From NCBI GenBank assembly GCA_947632065.1, contig CANRNO010000006.1, positions 1-53,599 on the forward strand: a DNA stretch of 53,599 bases. The letters run 5' to 3'. Every line of letters starts with the position of its first letter. The stretch's first letter is position 1. Source of the DNA: an uncultured Bacilli bacterium. Lineage in GTDB: Bacteria > Bacillota_I > Bacilli_A > RF39 > UBA660. The translations under genes and the position numbers were made by a program. The notes beneath the pieces are model-generated. The model saw nothing but the letters and a program-made list of their open reading frames with translations. It did not search any database and was not told where the DNA came from. Positions 29,806-46,838 of the stretch are shown piece by piece.

Positions 29806-31434
29806 ATGGAAGAAAGAGAAGAGATGTATTCAATGATTGATAATAGTAATAAAAAGAAGAAAAAAAGAAAAGTATTTTTAATTATTTTTATTTTATTGTT
29901 AATTATAGGTGGAAGTGTTTTTGTTTATTTTGAGTTTGTTGCACCTAAATCAGATAAAATAAAAACAAAATCAAAATCTGTTGCATCTAAATATCGTATG
30001 GATGGTAATGGTTTAGAAAAATTTGATTTAGAATTTTTAAAATTAGAAAATAAGAATGAAAATATTGTGTATAGTCCACTTTCTATTAAATATGCTTTAG
30101 CGATGTTAAAAGAAGGTGCTGGTGGAGAAGATAAAGAACAAATAAAACAAGTAATAGGTGATTATAAAGTAAAAGAATATGATAATAATAAAAATATGTC
30201 TTTTGCTAATGCTATGTTTATAAAAGAAAATTATAAAGAAGATGTAAAAGAAAAATATATAAATAAACTTTCGAAAAAATATAGTGCAGATATTATGTTT
30301 GATTCATTTAAAAGTCCAGATAAAGTTAATTCTTGGGTTAATGAAAAAACATTAGGATTAATAAGTAGTTTATTTGATGATATTTCAGATTATAAATTTT
30401 TACTTATAAATGCTCTTGCAATTGATATGGATTGGAATGAGAGAATTCAAAATTCTACTGCTGATAGTACAACTAAAAATCCAGATGTTTATCAAGTAAA
30501 GTATGAACATGAAAAATATTCTGAATTAATCACACCACTTGATTCGGATGACAGTTATAAGAGTTTAGCATTTAATGATAAAACAATGTATGCTAAAGCA
30601 GTTGAGATTGGTGCTTCAATTAATAACTATGATATTGTTAAAGAGTTAGGTGAGGAGAATATTAGAAGTACTATTACAAAAGAGTATGATAATTATGTAG
30701 AAAATGGTGGAGATTGTGTTGATACAACACTTAGTACTTCTCAATTTGTAGATAATTTTGTAAAAGAGTTAAATTCTAATTATCATAAGTTAACTGTATC
30801 AACTGATTTTATGATTTATAATGATAAGGATATAAAGGCTTTTGCGAAAGATTTAAAAGAATATGATGGTATGACTTTACAATATGTAGCAATTATGCCT
30901 AAATATCAAGATATTAACAATTATATAAAGGATATAGATAAAGATAGTATTAATGATATTATTAATAAATTAAAGACAATAGAGAATAAGAACTTTGAAG
31001 AAGGAAAAGTTACTAAAATAACTGGTTATATTCCTATGTTTAATTTTGAAAAAGAAATAGAATTAAAAGAAGATTTGAAAAAATTAGGAATTAAAAATGT
31101 ATTTAAAAAGGGTAAAGCTGATTTATCTGATATGATGAAGGATAATGAAACATTTATTGATACTGTTAAGCATAAAGCTAATATAGATTTTTCAAATGAT
31201 GGTATTAAGGCTTCTGCTGCTACTGCAGGTGGTGGTATGGGAGCATTTACTTGTGGATTTGAGCATTTATATGATGTTCCTATTGAAACTATTGATATGA
31301 CATTTGATAGACCTTATATTTTCTTAATTCGTGATAAAGATAGTGGAGAGGTTTGGTTTGCTGGAAAAGTTTATCAACCAACAGAAAAACCTTGTGATGA
31401 GGCTGCTAAACAATTAGATAATTGTGTTGGTTAA
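29806..31434 (+). CDS. Membrane-anchored serpin
   Basis: A 542-residue protein. A basic N-terminus and one transmembrane helix (about residues 22-44) are followed by a serpin fold: FDLEFLKLENKNENIVYSPL, IKYALAMLKEGAGG, the hinge DGIKASAATAGGG (from about residue 462), the variable reactive loop, and the C-terminal block FDRPYIFLIRDKDSGEVWFAGKV. A middle insertion of roughly 80 residues with a Cys makes it longer than the 370-400-residue family core. Serpins trap serine or cysteine proteases by suicide inhibition. GGGAGTGGGATT precedes the ATG. Confidence 0.9.
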   Translation: MEEREEMYSMIDNSNKKKKKRKVFLIIFILLLIIGGSVFVYFEFVAPKSDKIKTKSKSVASKYRMDGNGLEKFDLEFLKLENKNENIVYSPLSIKYALAMLKEGAGGEDKEQIKQVIGDYKVKEYDNNKNMSFANAMFIKENYKEDVKEKYINKLSKKYSADIMFDSFKSPDKVNSWVNEKTLGLISSLFDDISDYKFLLINALAIDMDWNERIQNSTADSTTKNPDVYQVKYEHEKYSELITPLDSDDSYKSLAFNDKTMYAKAVEIGASINNYDIVKELGEENIRSTITKEYDNYVENGGDCVDTTLSTSQFVDNFVKELNSNYHKLTVSTDFMIYNDKDIKAFAKDLKEYDGMTLQYVAIMPKYQDINNYIKDIDKDSINDIINKLKTIENKNFEEGKVTKITGYIPMFNFEKEIELKEDLKKLGIKNVFKKGKADLSDMMKDNETFIDTVKHKANIDFSNDGIKASAATAGGGMGAFTCGFEHLYDVPIETIDMTFDRPYIFLIRDKDSGEVWFAGKVYQPTEKPCDEAAKQLDNCVG

Positions 31435-32268: not shown

Positions 32269-34587
32269 ATGTTAAATAATATTATAAATATCGATTTACA
32301 TATACATTCTAAGGCTAGCTTTTATAAAGATGGAGTAATTGTTGAAAATTCGGATATAAATCACATTGATACTCTTATTACAAAGTTACAAGAAAATAAT
32401 ATTAGTTTATTTTCTATCACAGATCATAATCGTTTTGATTATGAATTGTATAGTATGATTAATCAGAAGATAAAGAGTGATAATACTATAAAAATGAACA
32501 ACTTACCTGGAGTTGAATTTGATGTTATTTTAGAAATAGGAAAACCTAAATGTCATATAATTGCTATTTTTAATGATAAAGATACTAGTAAAATTAAAGA
32601 AATTGAGAATAAAATATTTTCTGTAAGAAAACTTACATCTTCAGATGAATCGTATACTCTTAAACAATTTGAAGAAATTTTAAAAGTAATAAATTTAGAA
32701 GTTATTTTAATTGTTCATCAAAAACAGGCATTAGACAACGAATATGGAGATACTAATAGTTTATCAAATGCTACTGATAATCCATATAAATTTATTAAAG
32801 TTGGGTATATTGATTCATTAGAATATAATTATCCTAGAATTGAAGGGATTGTTAAAGATAGTTTAAGAAAAGTCGATTTAGATTTTCCTATAATAACAGG
32901 AAGTGACTGTCATACTTGGGATAATTATCCATATCATAGTGTACCAAATGGTAGAAAAAGAGATTTTACATCTTTCAAATGTTTACCAACATTTAAAGGA
33001 TTATTAATGTCAATAACTTCATTTAATTCAAGAGTAAATAGAGTTGAAAATCAAAATAATAATTATATTTCGGCAATTAGTATTAATGGTATTGAATATC
33101 CATTAGCTAATGGTTTAAATGCGATTATTGGTGATAATGGTTCTGGCAAATCACTTTTGCTAAATTTAATAGCACAAGGAGATAAAAAATATTATGATTC
33201 ATTAGTAGAAGAAAATAAGATAAAATATATACCAAGTAATGATAACTTTCAAAAAGAATATATTAATTATATTGCCCAAGGAGATATAATACGAAAGGTT
33301 CGTGAAGGAAATCTTTTTGATGATAGTGATAAAAATTATTATGATGAAATTGAAAACAAGGATATTTTTGCTCAAAAGATTCGAAAATATTTTAATGATT
33401 TAATTTCCTATGTAAGTCATACAATTAGCATTAATGAGTCCCAAATAAATTTAGCAAGTAAAAATTTGAAAATAACTCCAATTAATAAAAACTTTTATCA
33501 TCCTATTGTTAAATCAGAAATTGAAAATGAAGATATTACTAAAGATAAACAAAGAAAGACTGAATTAAATAGAATATATGAAAATCTAAAATTAGAAATT
33601 TTTAATAATAAAGTTTATTATAAAGATTTAGGCATTTATGATAGACTACAAAACAATTTACAAGAATTAAAGGAAATACTAGATGTAGTTATTAAAAGAT
33701 ATGAAGAAAAGAATAAAAGAAATACAGTAAAAAACCTAATAAAAAAACATTTGGAGAGATACAAATTAGATTTAGCATCTAAAAGAACATCTGAAGAAAT
33801 GGAAAGAACTGTAATAATTGAAAAATATGATGATTTTAAAAAAAGTTTAATTGATCATATAAGATTAAAGAATCAAACAATAACTTTTCCTAATTTTCCT
33901 TCTAAAATGGAAGGTTGTTCAATAAAATCATATAAAAATTATGAATTTGAGAAACATACTGCATATCATAATATTGATTTAAAAAATGAATTTTATCAAT
34001 ACTGCTTTAATACAAATTATGCAAATGAGGATGCTATAAAAAGTATTAATTCAAAAGATACACTTTCAGCGTCTTTAAAAAATTCTTCTTTAAAAGAATT
34101 AGAATCTTTTAAAAATGGAAGACTTGAGAAATTTATAACTGATTGGAGTAAAGAAACAACATCTATTTCCGAAATTACATCTAAAGAAAGTATAGGTAAT
34201 ACCCCTGGAGAGATTTCATTAATTTATTATAAATTTCTAATTCAGGAATCTGACAAAGATTTTTATGTTTTAGTAATAGATCAACCTGAAGATGATATTA
34301 ATCCAAGAAGAATTAAAGAGTTTTTAATTAAATTTTTAAGTTCAATTAAAGATAAAAAACAAGTAATATTAGTTACGCATAATCCACTTTTAGTCGTAAA
34401 TCTAGATGTGGATAATGTTATTCACTTAACAAAAGTCAACAATAAAATAGAAGTTAAAAATGGTGCGTTAGAATATGAAAAGGAAGAGGAAAAATATTCA
34501 ATATTAGATTTAATAAAAAATAATCTTGATGGTGGCTATAAAGCAGTTGAAAGGAGATTAAAAGTTTATGAAAGAGATAATGATTAA
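32269..34587 (+). CDS. PHP-domain AAA/SMC-like ATPase (TrlF-like)
   Basis: A 772-residue two-part protein. Residues 1-240 form a PHP metallo-phosphoesterase domain with DLHIHSKAS, SITDHNRFD, GVEFDV and TGSDCHTW, so the metal ligands are present. Residues 260-772 form an ABC/SMC-type ATPase: Walker A is GDNGSGKS near 290, a long coiled-coil central region follows, Walker B is VIDQPEDD near 668 and the H-loop is LVTHNP. This is the architecture of TrlF-family and related defence ATPases. GGATGGTGAAG lies before the ATG. It probably forms a cassette with the next gene. Confidence 0.85.
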   Translation: MLNNIINIDLHIHSKASFYKDGVIVENSDINHIDTLITKLQENNISLFSITDHNRFDYELYSMINQKIKSDNTIKMNNLPGVEFDVILEIGKPKCHIIAIFNDKDTSKIKEIENKIFSVRKLTSSDESYTLKQFEEILKVINLEVILIVHQKQALDNEYGDTNSLSNATDNPYKFIKVGYIDSLEYNYPRIEGIVKDSLRKVDLDFPIITGSDCHTWDNYPYHSVPNGRKRDFTSFKCLPTFKGLLMSITSFNSRVNRVENQNNNYISAISINGIEYPLANGLNAIIGDNGSGKSLLLNLIAQGDKKYYDSLVEENKIKYIPSNDNFQKEYINYIAQGDIIRKVREGNLFDDSDKNYYDEIENKDIFAQKIRKYFNDLISYVSHTISINESQINLASKNLKITPINKNFYHPIVKSEIENEDITKDKQRKTELNRIYENLKLEIFNNKVYYKDLGIYDRLQNNLQELKEILDVVIKRYEEKNKRNTVKNLIKKHLERYKLDLASKRTSEEMERTVIIEKYDDFKKSLIDHIRLKNQTITFPNFPSKMEGCSIKSYKNYEFEKHTAYHNIDLKNEFYQYCFNTNYANEDAIKSINSKDTLSASLKNSSLKELESFKNGRLEKFITDWSKETTSISEITSKESIGNTPGEISLIYYKFLIQESDKDFYVLVIDQPEDDINPRRIKEFLIKFLSSIKDKKQVILVTHNPLLVVNLDVDNVIHLTKVNNKIEVKNGALEYEKEEEKYSILDLIKNNLDGGYKAVERRLKVYERDND

Positions 34588-34915
34588 TTTAACCATGAAT
34601 GAAGATAAAGATATAGTAGTAGCAAATACGCTTAACGAAAAGTTTTTTACAATATCATATGAAAACAAAATTATTAAAGCTGTGGACATTTATGAACTAC
34701 TAACTTATCAACTTAATAATACTTATAAAATAGAAAGCAATCTAGATGAAATAACTGATCAAAATGATAAAACATATTTTACCGATATTGTTAATTTAAT
34801 TCAGTCAATTATTGATGAAATAAATGAAATGTTAAATTTACCAGATTTTTTTGAAGAATCGGAAATCAATGAGAATATTATAGAAGAAAAACAAGTATTA
34901 GAAGAAACGATATAA
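34568..34915 (+). CDS. Small acidic protein paired with the PHP-ATPase
   Basis: A 115-residue protein overlapping the PHP-ATPase gene by 20 bp, so the two are translated together. It is acidic, with a beta-rich first half (FFTISYENKIIKAVDIYELL) and a helical Asp/Glu-rich second half (DIVNLIQSIIDEINEMLNL) ending in a Glu-rich tail. No family is recognised. AAAGGAG lies 11 bases before the ATG; the ATG at 34580 is an alternative. Tight coupling suggests a partner, regulator or inhibitor of the ATPase. Confidence 0.7.
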   Translation: MKEIMINLTMNEDKDIVVANTLNEKFFTISYENKIIKAVDIYELLTYQLNNTYKIESNLDEITDQNDKTYFTDIVNLIQSIIDEINEMLNLPDFFEESEINENIIEEKQVLEETI

Positions 34916-35065: not shown

Positions 35066-35076
35066 CTATATATCAA

Positions 35077-35095
35077 TGTTCGAAAAGTTCGAACA
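35077..35095. repeat. Inverted repeat next to tRNA-Gly(GCC)
   Basis: TGTTCGAA (35077-35084) and TTCGAACA (35088-35095) are perfect inverted arms around AAG. It lies between the tRNA 3' end and its terminator, so it would be in the tRNA precursor's trailer as a second hairpin. Confidence 0.6.
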
Positions 35096-35105
35096 AATTC
35101 GTCAA

Positions 35106-35180
35106 TGGAGCGGACGAGGGAAATCGAATCCCCATCACAGCCTTGGCAAGGCCGTATTCTAACCATTAAACCACATCCGC
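35106..35180 (-). tRNA. tRNA-Gly (anticodon GCC)
   Basis: The minus strand begins GCGGATG, has the anticodon loop TTGCCAA (anticodon GCC), a T-arm with GATTCGATT, acceptor 3' CGTCCGC, discriminator T and encoded CCA. The acceptor and D-arm closely resemble the other tRNA-Gly at 355-428. Confidence 0.95.
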
Positions 35181-35278
35181 ATAAATTAATTCTATCACAA
35201 AATTGAATTTTATTTCAATAATTTTTATGAATTTTATATAATTTATAGTATAATGTTAATAGCATGGGATGTGATAAA

Positions 35279-36961: not shown

Positions 36962-37196
36962 GTTGTTTAAAAGCGATGAAGTCGAGGAGTATATAATAGT
37001 TTATTTAAAGAGAGTATAGGTGTGGTGTGACTATATATTAAACATTATAGAAGGTAGCGATGGAGTTTTATTTCTGAGTTTAGTAAGAAATAACGTAAAT
37101 GATGCGTTAAATCAAAGAGATTACAAATAATTTGTAAATTAAGGTGGTACCGCGGTTTTTTCGTCCTTAGATGAAAGACTGCGTTTTTATTTTTAG
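36962..37196 (+). promoter_or_regulatory. T-box riboswitch controlling the HD hydrolase-valS operon
   Basis: The leader starts with AAGCGATGAAG, contains the distal stem I AGAGAG and GGTGTGGTGTG elements, and carries the diagnostic T-box AAGGTGGTACCGCG at 37141-37154, which pairs with the uncharged tRNA acceptor end. A GTA triplet at 37054-37056 in the likely specifier loop is a valine codon, consistent with valS downstream, but the loop boundaries were set by eye. Uncharged tRNA-Val would favour antitermination. Confidence 0.93.
37151..37196 (+). terminator. Regulated terminator of the T-box
   Basis: CGC and GTCCTT on the left pair with AAGAC and GCG on the right (imperfect), followed by TTTTTATTTTT. 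It overlaps the T-box sequence, so antiterminator and terminator exclude each other. The ribosome site GGAGG follows directly. Confidence 0.75.
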
Positions 37197-37206
37197 GAGG
37201 ATAAAT

Positions 37207-37962
37207 ATGTTAACTATTTCTGATTATGAAAAATGTAAAAGAGCATTTGATGATTACGTGGATAAATTTGATGTAGAAGATGATATGATAAAAAGAAAAA
37301 AAGAGCATAGTTATAAAGTGGCAGATTTAATGGAAGAGCTTTCTTTTAAACTTTCACTTTTAGAAGAAGAAGTGATACTTGCAAGGATTATTGGACTTTT
37401 ACATGATATAGGAAGATTTGAACAAATAAAAAGATATCACTCTTTTTCAGATAAGAATGTAGATCATGCAGATGAAGGGTGTAAGTATTTGTTTAAAGAA
37501 GGTCATATTAGAGATTTTCTTGATGAGAAGGCATATGATAAATTAATTGAACACGCTATTAAGTATCATAATAAATTAGAAATTCAAAGTGATGATAATG
37601 TTTCTAATTTGCTTTTTGCTAAAATGATTAGAGATATGGATAAAGTAGATATATTTTTACAATGTATAAAGACATATGATTATAGATTTGGTTATGATGA
37701 AATTTCTCCTAAAGTGTTAGAGAGTTTTATAACTAATAAATCTATAAGTTCTAAAGAAGTTAAGACTAAAAGTGATTCTGTTTTATTAGTGTTTGCTTTC
37801 TTGTTTGATTTTAATTTTAAAGAGAGTTTACAAATGCTAAAAGAGTCTGGTAATTTTAATGTATTTGTTGATTCTATTAATATTGAAGAAAATGCAAGGG
37901 ATGATTTTGAAAAACTTAAAAATATATGTTTAGATTGTATGGAAAGAAAAGTAGGTGAATAA
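37207..37962 (+). CDS. HD-domain phosphohydrolase
   Basis: A 251-residue HD-domain protein. Metal ligands are the His in KKEHSYKVADL, the HD pair in GLLHDIGRFEQ, the following histidines in DEGCKYLF and HAIKYHNK, and the Asp in MIRDMDKVDIF. The family hydrolyses phosphate esters of nucleotides. It sits between the T-box and valS and overlaps neither, being 1 bp from valS, so it is made when valine charging falls. GGAGGATAAAT before ATG 37207 sets the start. Confidence 0.88.
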   Translation: MLTISDYEKCKRAFDDYVDKFDVEDDMIKRKKEHSYKVADLMEELSFKLSLLEEEVILARIIGLLHDIGRFEQIKRYHSFSDKNVDHADEGCKYLFKEGHIRDFLDEKAYDKLIEHAIKYHNKLEIQSDDNVSNLLFAKMIRDMDKVDIFLQCIKTYDYRFGYDEISPKVLESFITNKSISSKEVKTKSDSVLLVFAFLFDFNFKESLQMLKESGNFNVFVDSINIEENARDDFEKLKNICLDCMERKVGE

Positions 37963-40910: not shown

Positions 40911-40942
40911 AAAGAGTTTAATTTTGAGTTAAACTCTTTTTT
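40911..40942. terminator. Bidirectional terminator between the lipoprotein gene and the lipase-like gene
   Basis: AAAGAGTTTAA (40911-40921) pairs with TTAAACTCTTT (40929-40939), flanked by A-run and T-run, serving both convergent genes. Confidence 0.9.
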
Positions 40943-42000
40943 AATGTACTATCTTTTATTGATTTATATAAATATTCTAGTATTTGCATAGTCATCTTTT
41001 TATCTTTTTCACTTAGATTTTTATATGAAGATAACATATCTTTCATTGCCATAAATTTATTTTTTGAAAGTTCTTTAAATGTTGTTTTGTTAGTAGAGGT
41101 TAGTATTTTATATAAGATATCTGCGAAGTTTTCTCTTTCTTCTTTAGACATTTGTGCTAACCATTCATTCATTACTTCTTTTACAAAATCACTATTTTGA
41201 TTTACTTCATTTAGATATTCAAAATGGTCACATTCTAGTTTCCATGAGAATAAATCATGTTGAAGTAAAAATATTTCATCACTTTTTATTACTTGATAGA
41301 TATTATTTGAATTAAGAAGTCTTCCTACAACAGAACTTTGTGGTATATATGTTTTTATTTTCTTTTCTATTAATTTATATTCTGGACTTTCTATAACGTC
41401 TTCTAAGAATCCTGGACCATCATTATTAAATACAGTTATTATTTTTCTTTTGATATTGATATTTGCTTTCATTGCAGCATAGACTGCTAGGTTACCACCT
41501 TTAGAATGACCACCTACATAAAGTTTAGTTTTTATACCGACATGAGTATTATTTAAGTAATTTGCAGCACTTTCTCTAGAAGGAATAGTTTCTAGAAAAG
41601 TCATGTTGAAATCTTCTTTCCAACCTATAAAAGTATTATCTGTACCTCTAAATGATATATATAAAATATCTTCAGGTAATTCTATTGTAACTGCAGCGAA
41701 CTGTTTTTCTTCTGTGAAATTAGTATCTGATTCAAAGTTGGCAAGAGTTAAATATTTATATCTTTCACTTACACAAAGTAATCTTAAAAGTTCTAAGTCT
41801 TCTTCTTTTTTTAAAGCTTTTTTATGATCTAATAGAGTCATATAAAGATTTCCAAGAGTTATTTTTTCATTTTTCTTTAAAATTAGTTCTAGTGGAAAAT
41901 AAGAAATTCTTGAACAAATTAAATTATCAATTTCATTAAATGGAATAATAGAGAAGCTTAAATCTCCACGCCATTTTAAATAATCAAATATATCTCCCAT
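40918..42000 (-). CDS. Mbeg1-like alpha/beta hydrolase (DUF2974)
   Basis: A 360-residue protein. The lipase region has LYISFRGTDNTFIGWKEDFNM and the nucleophile elbow YVGGHSKGGNLAVYAA with the Ser, then FNNDGPGF. This is the DUF2974/Mbeg1 pattern of putative lipases. No signal peptide is visible, so it acts inside. AAAGGAAATATATT lies before the ATG. It is 12 bp after the dCMP deaminase gene and probably on the same transcript. Confidence 0.88.
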   Translation of the reverse strand: MGDIFDYLKWRGDLSFSIIPFNEIDNLICSRISYFPLELILKKNEKITLGNLYMTLLDHKKALKKEEDLELLRLLCVSERYKYLTLANFESDTNFTEEKQFAAVTIELPEDILYISFRGTDNTFIGWKEDFNMTFLETIPSRESAANYLNNTHVGIKTKLYVGGHSKGGNLAVYAAMKANINIKRKIITVFNNDGPGFLEDVIESPEYKLIEKKIKTYIPQSSVVGRLLNSNNIYQVIKSDEIFLLQHDLFSWKLECDHFEYLNEVNQNSDFVKEVMNEWLAQMSKEERENFADILYKILTSTNKTTFKELSKNKFMAMKDMLSSYKNLSEKDKKMTMQILEYLYKSIKDSTLKKSLTQN

Positions 42001-45187: not shown

Positions 45188-45199
45188 TTAAGTCTTTTT
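45172..45199. terminator. Palindromic bidirectional terminator between mreD and fhs
   Basis: The 28 nt from 45172 to 45199 are a perfect palindrome: AAAAAGACTTAATT is followed by its reverse complement. It covers the last codons of mreD and touches the stop of the convergent fhs gene. Confidence 0.9.
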
Positions 45200-46838
45200 A
45201 AAATAGTCCAGTAATTATACCATCTTTATCAATATTCATATTCATATAAGATGGATGTTTTGAAAGTCCTGGCATAGTCATTATATCTCCCATTAATACT
45301 ACTATGAATCCAGCACCACTACAAAGTCTAACTTCTTTTACAGTAACATTATGGTTTTTAGGAAATCCTAGTTTATTAGGATCATCAGATATAGAATATT
45401 GAGTTTTAGCAATACAAACAGGTAAGTTTCTATATCCTAAATCTTCGAGTTTTTTTATCTGTTCTAAAACATTATCTTTATATATTACATCTTTAGCATG
45501 ATATATTTCTTTAGAAATAATTTTTATTTTTTCTGTGATAGGTAAGTCTAAGTCATATAATAATTTAAAATCAGATTTTTTGTTACAAATATCTATTATT
45601 TTTTTAGCTAAATCAATTGAACCTTTTCCTCCTAGAGTATGAGCTTTAGAAATAGCAAATTCACAATTTAAGTTTTCTACATAATCTTTAACATATTCTA
45701 TTTCTTCTTTAGTATCACTTATAAAATTATTAAGACATATGATTATGTTAGATGAGTATTTTTTCATATTTTCTATATGAGCTTCTAGATTACATATTCC
45801 TTTTTTTAGATAATCTAAATTTTCTTCTTGAAGATTTTCTTTTGTACATCCTCCATTATATTTTAGACTTCTAATAGTTGCATTTATGACAATACAATTT
45901 GGTTTTAAATTACCTATACGACATTTTATATCTAAGAATTTTTCAGCACCTAAGTCTGATCCGAATCCTGCTTCTGTAATTACATAATCAGCAAGAGAAA
46001 GGGAAGTTTTAGTTGCGATTATCGAATTACATCCATGAGCAATATTAGCAAAAGGTCCACCGTGGATAATTGCTGGATTGTTTTCTAGTGTTTGTACTAA
46101 GTTTGGTTTTATAGCATCTTTAAGTAAAAGAGTTAGAGCACCTTCTATTTTTAAATCTCTTGCGAAAATTGGTTTATCATCTTTAGTATAAGCAATTAAA
46201 ATATTACCAAGTCTTTTCTTTAAATCCATTAAATCTGTACAAAGACATAAAATTGCCATTATTTCAGATGCGACTGATATATTAAAACCATCTTTTCTTT
46301 GAGTTTTATCTTTTCCAACAATTACTTCTCGTAGTGCTCTATCATTAATATCCATACAACGTTTAAAAGAAATTCTATCTTTATTTATGTTTAACTTGTT
46401 TCCTTGAAATAAATGATTATCAATGGCTGCGGATAATAAATTGTTACAAGCAGTTATAGCATGAATGTCTCCTGTAAAATGTAAGTTGATGTCTTCCATT
46501 GGAACAACTTGAGCATATCCTCCTCCAGCAGCACCTCCTTTAATTCCAAATACAGGACCAAGAGATGGTTCTCTTAGTGTTACAATACTTTTATAACCTA
46601 GAGAACATAGGGCATCATTTATTCCTATACTCATAGTTGTTTTTCCTTCTCCAAAAGGAGTAGGGTTAATAGAAGTTACTAGAATAAGTTTGGCTTTTTT
46701 GTTTTTAAATTTAGGATTAATTTTAGCTTTATATTTTCCATATAATTCTAAGTCATCTTCTTTAATATTTAATTTTTTAGCAACCTCATTAATATTTTTT
46801 AATTTTGTATTGTGTGCTATTTCAATATCTGATTTCAT
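45198..46838 (-). CDS. fhs: Formate-tetrahydrofolate ligase
   Basis: A 546-residue enzyme making 10-formyl-THF from formate, THF and ATP. The ATP loop is TPFGEGKTT near residue 64, followed by REPSLGPVFGIKGGAAGGG and MEDINLHFTGDIHAI, and later TEAGFGSDLGAEKFL and CSGAGFIVVLMGDIMTMPGL. It feeds one-carbon units to purines and initiator formyl-Met. Length is near the usual 556. TTGAGGTGATAAT lies before the ATG. No partner folate genes are next to it. Confidence 0.97.
   Translation of the reverse strand: MKSDIEIAHNTKLKNINEVAKKLNIKEDDLELYGKYKAKINPKFKNKKAKLILVTSINPTPFGEGKTTMSIGINDALCSLGYKSIVTLREPSLGPVFGIKGGAAGGGYAQVVPMEDINLHFTGDIHAITACNNLLSAAIDNHLFQGNKLNINKDRISFKRCMDINDRALREVIVGKDKTQRKDGFNISVASEIMAILCLCTDLMDLKKRLGNILIAYTKDDKPIFARDLKIEGALTLLLKDAIKPNLVQTLENNPAIIHGGPFANIAHGCNSIIATKTSLSLADYVITEAGFGSDLGAEKFLDIKCRIGNLKPNCIVINATIRSLKYNGGCTKENLQEENLDYLKKGICNLEAHIENMKKYSSNIIICLNNFISDTKEEIEYVKDYVENLNCEFAISKAHTLGGKGSIDLAKKIIDICNKKSDFKLLYDLDLPITEKIKIISKEIYHAKDVIYKDNVLEQIKKLEDLGYRNLPVCIAKTQYSISDDPNKLGFPKNHNVTVKEVRLCSGAGFIVVLMGDIMTMPGLSKHPSYMNMNIDKDGIITGLF

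What the first reader, a model, noticed from the sequence alone, without database searches (positions are those of the whole stretch)
32269..34915. Two-gene PHP-ATPase cassette beside a tRNA-Gly, candidate defence system
Seen: a 772-residue protein with an intact PHP metal site, Walker A and Walker B plus a coiled-coil core, overlapping by 20 bp with a 115-residue acidic protein of no known family. A tRNA-Gly gene is 190 bp downstream. Known: nuclease-like domains fused to SMC/ABC ATPases (RloC, TrlF and others) are common in anti-phage and tRNA-targeting systems. Inferred: the small protein is a partner or inhibitor. By eye the codon usage (more CCA, TCA) differs from nearby genes.
Basis: partly seen in the sequence, partly recalled or inferred. 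Interest (0 to 1): 0.65.

Follow-up and report, generated by a model that had tools for sequence, protein, structure and literature searches.

The report
PHP-ATPase nuclease with regulatory partner
A two-gene cassette, probably an anti-phage defence, pairs a nuclease-like ATPase with a small partner protein that in some relatives carries a DNA-damage-triggered self-cutting domain or an SSB-like tail, which suggests the nuclease is switched by single-stranded-DNA stress.

Summary
In detail: a 772-aa PHP-ATPase (A) overlaps a 115-aa acidic ORF (B) by 20 bp. A is a divergent member of the TrlF/Ppl superfamily of PHP-ATPases, below every curated cut-off, with intact PHP ligands, an SMC/RecN-type ATPase head and a Gln at the Walker-B catalytic position. 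B has no family model and one sequence finds almost nothing, but by position it is constant: of 81 related loci, mostly Bacillota and Actinomycetota, all 74 that could show it have an overlapping small ORF (rate for other genes 7%). B models confidently (pLDDT 85) as beta3-alpha-beta-alpha with a loose acidic tail. Two features of relatives point to its role: four B proteins carry a C-terminal LexA/UmuD-type S24 domain with cleavage site and Ser-Lys dyad; seven end in an SSB-like tip (-DDLPF, -EDIPF), mostly close to their host's SSB end. Neighbours are often restriction-modification or BREX genes; the window site varies between close relatives. Best reading: a defence nuclease gated by a regulatory subunit that listens to RecA-ssDNA or SSB-ssDNA signals. 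Gating, its direction and phage defence itself are inferred. PADLOC's candidate PDC-M49 has the same layout; A is related there, B not detectably.

The parts
32269..34587 (+). gene A: PHP-SMC/ABC-type ATPase, 772 aa
   Evidence: ORF; NCBIfam TrlF_fam_ATP 168.6 bits, cut-off 350; model pLDDT 88.9
32269..33042 (+). PHP phosphoesterase domain (about residues 1-258), metal ligands intact
   Evidence: conservation; fold match PfuEndoQ Z 16.2 over 213 residues, V. cholerae RNase AM Foldseek E 1.2e-5
33130..33153 (+). Walker A, residues 288-295 (GDNGSGKS)
   Evidence: translation; conservation
33358..33873 (+). long-helix (coiled-coil-like) region, residues 364-535
   Evidence: DSSP of the model
34279..34293 (+). 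Walker B DQPED, residues 671-675, with Gln in place of the usual catalytic Glu
   Evidence: 62 of 62 Gln in A5, 20 of 20 in A3
34378..34380 (+). H-loop-type histidine H704
   Evidence: 62 of 62
34551..34556 (+). Shine-Dalgarno-like AAGGAG for gene B, inside gene A
   Evidence: scored
34568..34915 (+). gene B: 115-aa acidic partner, overlaps A by 20 bp
   Evidence: partner rule
34568..34837 (+). B core (residues 1-90), beta3-alpha-beta-alpha
   Evidence: AlphaFold2 model, block pLDDT 90-98
34838..34912 (+). B acidic, disordered C-terminal tail (residues 91-115); no SSB-like tip in the window copy
   Evidence: block pLDDT 48-53; sequence
35106..35180 (-). tRNA-Gly(gcc) at the edge of the variable site; probably not part of the system
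   Evidence: flank comparison

Best explanation
A two-gene mobile defence cassette. A is a PHP-domain nuclease or phosphoesterase joined to an SMC/RecN-type ATP-binding head; B is its dedicated regulatory subunit, probably made from the same message by coupled translation. Most likely B's folded core binds A and holds it in a safe state, and B's variable C-terminal part is where the danger signal comes in: an S24 domain that cuts itself on RecA-ssDNA filaments in one lineage, an SSB-like tip or another acidic tail in others. Signals of stalled or foreign replication (ssDNA with RecA or SSB) change or remove B, A changes state, and the PHP site cleaves nucleic acid, stopping phage growth or the cell. 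Shown here: the pair, its constancy, the predicted folds, the S24 and SSB-like modules in relatives, the neighbourhood, the mobility. Inferred: A-B binding, the sign of B's effect, the trigger, the substrate and anti-phage activity.
For: Partner in 74 of 74 informative loci of 81, null 30 of 434; in the earlier, partly overlapping set 36 of 38, the two exceptions being other TrlF-type genes. A: conserved PHP ligands, EndoQ/RNase AM-like fold, SMC/ABC head. B: confident single-domain model with loose tail. Four B proteins, whose A proteins form one clade, carry Peptidase_S24 at E 8e-18 to 4.5e-21, with invariant CAGDG site, Ser and Lys at LexA/UmuD-like spacing, site-Ser 32-33 and Ser-Lys 36; cutting there would free a piece of 107-122 aa, about the size of a stand-alone B. 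SSB-like tips: of 1859 ORFs of 80 aa or more in the loci, 8 end in acidic-PF and 7 of those are B (Fisher p 9e-10, not corrected for kinship); B tips resemble the host SSB ends in five of the seven hosts compared. Nearest neighbours include ResIII 7, Eco57I-type 7, type I R 3, GmrSD 2, BrxL 1, DpnII 1, ApaLI 1 of 119. Precedent for this trigger logic: AbpAB is activated by phage SSB or host DNA damage (PMC10732053, abstract).
Against: The window's own B has neither S24 nor SSB tip, so the signal for this copy is unknown. Only 4 of the 67 distinct relative B proteins are S24 fusions, from one origin. Nothing here shows A-B contact; no complex was predicted. Whether cleavage would relieve inhibition or activate B (as in UmuD) cannot be told. 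The Walker-B Gln may mean weak or absent ATP hydrolysis. There is no phage assay. The neighbour scan had no matched control, and in the window the flanking genes (serpin, rhomboid) are not defence genes.
Confidence: 0.5

Rival explanations
1. B is an activator or targeting subunit: A is inactive alone and B brings it to SSB- or RecA-coated DNA (SSB-tip mimicry docks onto repair proteins; S24 cleavage matures B as UmuD is matured).
For: SSB-like tips are docking peptides in SSB (abstracts); cleavage at CAGDG would release a piece the size of stand-alone B; partner always present.
Against: Does not by itself explain the near-universal acidity of B (64 of 68 with net charge -2 or lower); no direct test.
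Confidence: 0.27
2. A toxin-antitoxin or plasmid-addiction pair, with B as antitoxin and no phage-specific function.
For: Two overlapping genes, small acidic partner, mobile context.
Against: A multi-domain 770-830 aa ATPase is unlike usual toxins; neighbours are often restriction-modification or BREX genes; S24 and SSB-like modules suggest DNA-stress sensing.
Confidence: 0.1
3. A host DNA-repair factor of RecN/EndoQ type with a small accessory subunit.
For: PHP fold nearest to the repair endonuclease EndoQ, head nearest to SMC/RecN.
Against: Patchy: about 20 of 386 genomes of the family by near-full-length match, 15 of 392 in the phylum sample; variable site; near-identical copies in different families (L140, L149).
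Confidence: 0.08
4. The S24 and SSB-like additions are lineage curiosities; B is only a structural stabiliser of A.
For: Most B proteins lack both; S24 has one origin.
Against: Tips enriched 7 against 1 and need at least 4 changes on the tree; both additions point to ssDNA metabolism.
Confidence: 0.05

Closest known systems
TrlF family AAA-like ATPase (NCBIfam NF045780; Photorhabdus TRL operon)
   Same: PHP plus ABC/SMC ATPase, DQPED Walker B; best curated match, 168.6 bits; 20 of 20 members of A3 match
   Different: Below the 350-bit cut-off; the three plasmid TrlF proteins read here are longer (894-927 residues with stop); the TRL operon has TrlR and TrlG (PMC7554251, passages); no overlapping B is annotated in the two informative TrlF plasmid loci of the three (gene tables there are incomplete)
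PDC-M49 (PADLOC candidate, A and B)
   Same: Two overlapping genes, PHP-ATPase then small protein; present in the same bacterial family; ATPase C-terminal part matches by profile, E 1.2e-18
   Different: Window A reaches only 29.8 bits, residues 7-153; B gets no PDC-M49B match and no significant profile match; PDC-M49A has DEP, not DQP, at Walker B
Ppl anti-phage protein (NCBIfam NF042955, PADLOC Ppl)
   Same: PHP plus ATPase in one chain; weak match 41.3 bits
   Different: Cut-off 1000 bits; [quoted passage not shown]
Spaf_1101 family AAA-like ATPase (NF045781)
   Same: 63.8 bits over residues 36-768
   Different: Cut-off 475 bits; partner not examined
LexA / UmuD / CI S24 autoproteases (works-like, for four relatives only)
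   Same: S24 domain, cleavage site, Ser-Lys dyad; similar to CI-like repressors
   Different: N-terminal part is the B core instead of a DNA-binding domain (no HTH family matched)
AbpAB (works-like)
   Same: Triggered by phage ssDNA-binding protein or host DNA damage (PMC10732053, abstract)
   Different: Different proteins: nuclease-domain AbpA and helicase AbpB

Membership tests
TrlF family (NF045780) | whole-protein score at or above the curated cut-off of 350 bits | tested here: not met
   168.6 bits
TrlF family (NF045780) | operon with TrlR and TrlG as in Photorhabdus | tested here: not met
   neighbours in the window are B, a 175-aa gene, serpin and rhomboid; one relative, L099, has a downstream ORF that looks like TrlG (AlbA_2 look, recalled; not scanned)
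PDC-M49 (PADLOC) | match to a PDC-M49A model along the protein | tested here: not met
   29.8 bits, residues 7-153 only; 10 of 20 relatives match each of two A models at E 1e-3; PADLOC's own threshold not seen
PDC-M49 (PADLOC) | match to a PDC-M49B model by the small gene | tested here: not met
   no match for the window B; 1 of 23 small proteins (L011) matches
PDC-M49 (PADLOC) | layout: PHP-ATPase with an overlapping small downstream gene | tested here: met
Ppl (NF042955) | score at or above 1000 bits | tested here: not met
   41.3 bits
Spaf_1101 (NF045781) | score at or above 475 bits | tested here: not met
   63.8 bits
PHP phosphoesterase superfamily | metal-ligand His/Asp/Glu set and PHP fold | tested here: met
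   invariant ligands (ligand roles recalled), EndoQ Z 16.2, rmsd 3.5, 213 residues; the Pfam PF02811 score, 14.7, is under its 26.4 cut-off
ABC/SMC ATPase | Walker A, Q-loop-like Gln, Walker B Asp, H-loop His | tested here: met
   G288, K294, Q337, D671, H704 invariant
ABC/SMC ATPase | catalytic Glu after the Walker B Asp | tested here: not met
   Gln in 62 of 62 and 20 of 20
Peptidase S24 (four relative B proteins, not the window) | Pfam PF00717 over cut-off, Ser-Lys dyad, Ala-Gly site | tested here: met
Peptidase S24 (four relative B proteins, not the window) | RecA-ssDNA-stimulated self-cleavage | not testable with these tools
   needs protein biochemistry
Anti-phage defence system | protects against phage | not testable with these tools
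   only context evidence

The most novel reading that the evidence does not exclude
A widespread, uncatalogued two-gene defence family in which a PHP-ATPase nuclease is controlled after translation by its own small subunit, and that subunit is wired directly to ssDNA stress: by LexA-type self-cleavage on RecA filaments in one lineage and by an SSB-tip mimic in others, so that the SOS signal switches a defence nuclease without any transcription step.
Probability: 0.33. Interest if true: 0.82.

Novelty: new variant of a known kind. Interest (0 to 1): 0.62.

Why it matters
PHP-ATPases (Ppl, TrlF and kin) include anti-phage systems, and the one paper seen here that discusses Ppl says no clear mechanism is known (PMC13152194, passages). 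A constant partner gene with a confident model, natural S24 fusions and SSB-like tips turns 'unknown trigger' into specific tests: does the S24 fusion self-cleave with RecA, does the tip bind SSB partners, does B silence A? It also gives annotators a rule, the small overlapping downstream ORF, that the Pfam, PADLOC, NCBIfam and PHROGs scans run here do not capture.

Tried and rejected
Single-sequence scans of genome and viral contigs with A found nothing confirmed; the profile A4 was needed. Single-sequence search with B found only itself and one weak hit, an unrelated 457-aa ORF: B is recognised by position and profile. tRNA targeting was rejected as a reading of the tRNA-Gly (55 of 60 loci have none; only L120 has one close by). 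Phages: A finds one weak ATPase-only match in 50,697 records; plasmids 34 records, all partial, TrlF-like. B fold: Foldseek had no match at E 0.001; the best VIA-align row was chloroplast resolvase MOC1, Z 6.1, rmsd 3.0, 80 residues, an RNase H-like arrangement of middling score that I do not use. B to PDC-M49B homology: not significant; one search compares two overlapping B sets and is only a consistency check. More S24 fusions: a 291-genome sample gave G770 itself and one partial match; the viral scan with A7 gave S24-domain matches whose N-terminal parts I did not follow. Papers: searches listed no paper naming PDC-M49 or, by title and abstract, describing this partner or an S24 fusion to it; most subscription journals are not in that library.

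Dropped or missing rows: seven of 81 loci were not counted for the partner, three at contig ends (L147, L150, L183) and four with truncated A (L181, L185, L192, L195). L141, L194 and L198 were added by reading the ORF lists, after the automatic rule missed them; in L198 the frame of A is broken near its end. Loci of the genome search set partly repeat those of the genome contigs set. Neighbour scan: 119 of 255 distinct neighbour proteins, the nearest on each side; only the first 25 families are shown by the tool.

Full report
Observation. The window is contig C6 of a 935-kb, 31-contig genome. Genes A (32269-34587, 772 aa) and B (34568-34915, 115 aa) overlap by 20 bp, with an AAGGAG stretch placed for B inside A. 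tRNA-Gly(gcc) lies 190 bp downstream on the other strand. Codon usage of A is mildly unusual, 5th of the 47 genes tested.

What A is. Pfam gives AAA_21 over its cut-off and PHP below it. NCBIfam gives TrlF 168.6 bits (cut-off 350), Spaf_1101 63.8 (475) and Ppl 41.3 (1000). The PHP part aligns best with PfuEndoQ (Z 16.2, rmsd 3.5, 213 residues) and also with V. cholerae RNase AM (Foldseek E 1.2e-5); the rest is an SMC/ABC head (SmcHead 4i99, Z 14.7, rmsd 3.9, 203 residues) with long helices. PHP ligands D9, H11, H13, H53, E83, H96, D213 and H215 are invariant in 62 of 62; H150 is His in 54 of 62. Which residues are metal ligands is recalled from PHP enzymes, not tested. The Walker B reads DQP, with Gln where ABC/SMC ATPases have their catalytic Glu, in 62 of 62 and 20 of 20; the three plasmid TrlF proteins read share it, while the two PDC-M49A proteins read have DEP. 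That an E-to-Q change slows hydrolysis in SMC/ABC proteins is recalled; PDB titles use 'EQ' mutants.

What B is. No library models it: Pfam, PADLOC, NCBIfam and PHROGs gave nothing convincing, and its sequence alone finds only itself and a spurious hit. Position reveals it. In the first set of 38 loci, 36 have a small ORF starting near or before A's stop; L099 is followed by a different, larger ORF and L102 by none. In the 81 loci of the profile scans, seven cannot show it (contig ends or broken A) and 74 of 74 have it. Among 434 other ORFs of 200 aa or more in the same loci, 30 (7%) have such a downstream ORF and 9 an acidic one. Of 68 distinct B proteins (the window's included), 64 have net charge -2 or lower, median -8. 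The model of the window B (65 sequences, pLDDT 85) has strands 3-10, 16-20, 26-29, helix 38-45, strand 52-57, helix 65-88, and a loose tail. No solved structure matches significantly.

Two revealing variants, in relatives and not in the window. (1) L158, L166, L170 and L182 have B proteins of 213-231 aa, with Pfam Peptidase_S24 at E 8e-18 to 4.5e-21, over cut-off. Their alignment has invariant CAGDG, Ser in G[DE]SM and Lys in CKR; the A-G bond lies after residue 107-122, site-Ser spacing is 32-33 and Ser-Lys 36, close to LexA and UmuD as recalled. tblastn finds CI-like phage repressors. In the tree of A the four form one clade (SH-aLRT 99). (2) B proteins of L122, L140, L141, L143, L145, L163 and L199 end in acidic-PF: 7 of the 8 such ends among 1859 ORFs of 80 aa or more, the eighth being another ORF in L194; L149 ends ECPF as well but misses the acidity rule. 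The tips of L122, L141, L143, L145 and L163 resemble their hosts' own SSB ends (for example EDDLPF against DNDLPF; DEDIPF against DEDIPF); L140 and L149 less so. The tips need at least four changes on the tree (L199 was not in the tree). Both variants tie B to proteins of ssDNA metabolism.

Context and mobility. In the window's family a near-full-length A was listed for about 20 of 386 genomes, and in the phylum sample for 15 of 392. The tree mixes Bacillota, Mycoplasmatota and Actinomycetota, and E. callanderi L140 and A. urinae L149 are nearly identical. Of 119 nearest-neighbour proteins (from 255), Pfam finds ResIII 7, Eco57I 7, HSDR_N 3, GmrSD_N 2, Recombinase 2, Fic 2, BrxL, DpnII and ApaLI 1 each, and PADLOC finds many methyltransferase and restriction models; there was no matched control, and one protein may match several families. 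In the same genus, G002 matches the window up to 32106 and from 35083 but its contigs break there, and no full-length A was found in it; G001 has the tRNA-Gly and rhomboid with two other genes between them and lacks the serpin, the 175-aa gene and the cassette there. So the site is variable; the exact empty site was not seen.

Mechanism. I take B as A's regulatory subunit. The core is shared and the C-terminus is swapped between an acidic tail, an SSB-like tip and an S24 domain, which looks like a fixed grip on A with changeable input. S24 self-cleavage is classically provoked by RecA-ssDNA (recalled; an abstract, PMC7101444, says so of LexA-like proteins and reports an exception in S. mutans). 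Cutting would leave a B-sized piece, so either a dimerised inhibitor is weakened (LexA-like) or B is matured (UmuD-like). I favour the inhibitor reading because an A without B was never seen among the 74, as expected if free A is harmful, but an obligate activator would look the same. AbpAB, activated by phage SSB or host DNA damage (PMC10732053, abstract), shows that a defence can use these two inputs.

Relation to known systems. PDC-M49 of PADLOC has the same layout and occurs in the same family (L299, L300: A at E about 1e-187). A profiles match over the ATPase end (E 1.2e-18); B profiles do not (E 0.33). The window pair fails the PDC-M49B test and reaches A only partly. It is therefore a new variant beside PDC-M49, TrlF and Ppl, not a member of any of them. 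No paper in the searched library mentions PDC-M49.

Limits. No binding, cleavage or phage data exist here. The S24 and SSB-tip evidence comes from relatives, the S24 type with one origin. Many loci are metagenome assemblies. The tree is a quick one with long branches noted by the program.

Noticed in passing
window 36967-37171 (+): T-box leader (127.6 bits) directly upstream of ORF 37171-37962, which is followed by an aminoacyl-tRNA-synthetase-like ORF at 37955 (by eye valyl-type; not scanned).
   Followed up: no
window 29806-31434 (+): Serpin gene (Pfam E 9.6e-50) in a bacterium, next to the variable site; the stretch is matched in G002 but not at this place in G001.
   Followed up: partly
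L297:2767-2910 against window 35075-35218: In the same-genus genome G001 the tRNA-Gly stretch matches the window in the opposite orientation to its flanks, as if inverted.
   Followed up: no
L097 and L098: In two Mollicute relatives the reading frame is interrupted by one TAA, so the ATPase part is a separate ORF of 541-555 aa still followed by a small ORF: possibly a natural three-gene split of PHP and ATPase.
   Followed up: partly
L194:4733-5548 (-): 272-aa protein ending YDDDIPF near an A-B locus, the only other acidic-PF end among the 1859 ORFs.
   Followed up: no
window 45198-46838 (-) and 40918-42000 (-): The two strongest codon-usage outliers of the window (z 14.9 and 11.0).
   Followed up: no
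L157, L159, L164: Nearly identical A proteins in different Lachnospiraceae genera, with upstream genes of restriction-enzyme size, suggesting a recent transfer.
   Followed up: no
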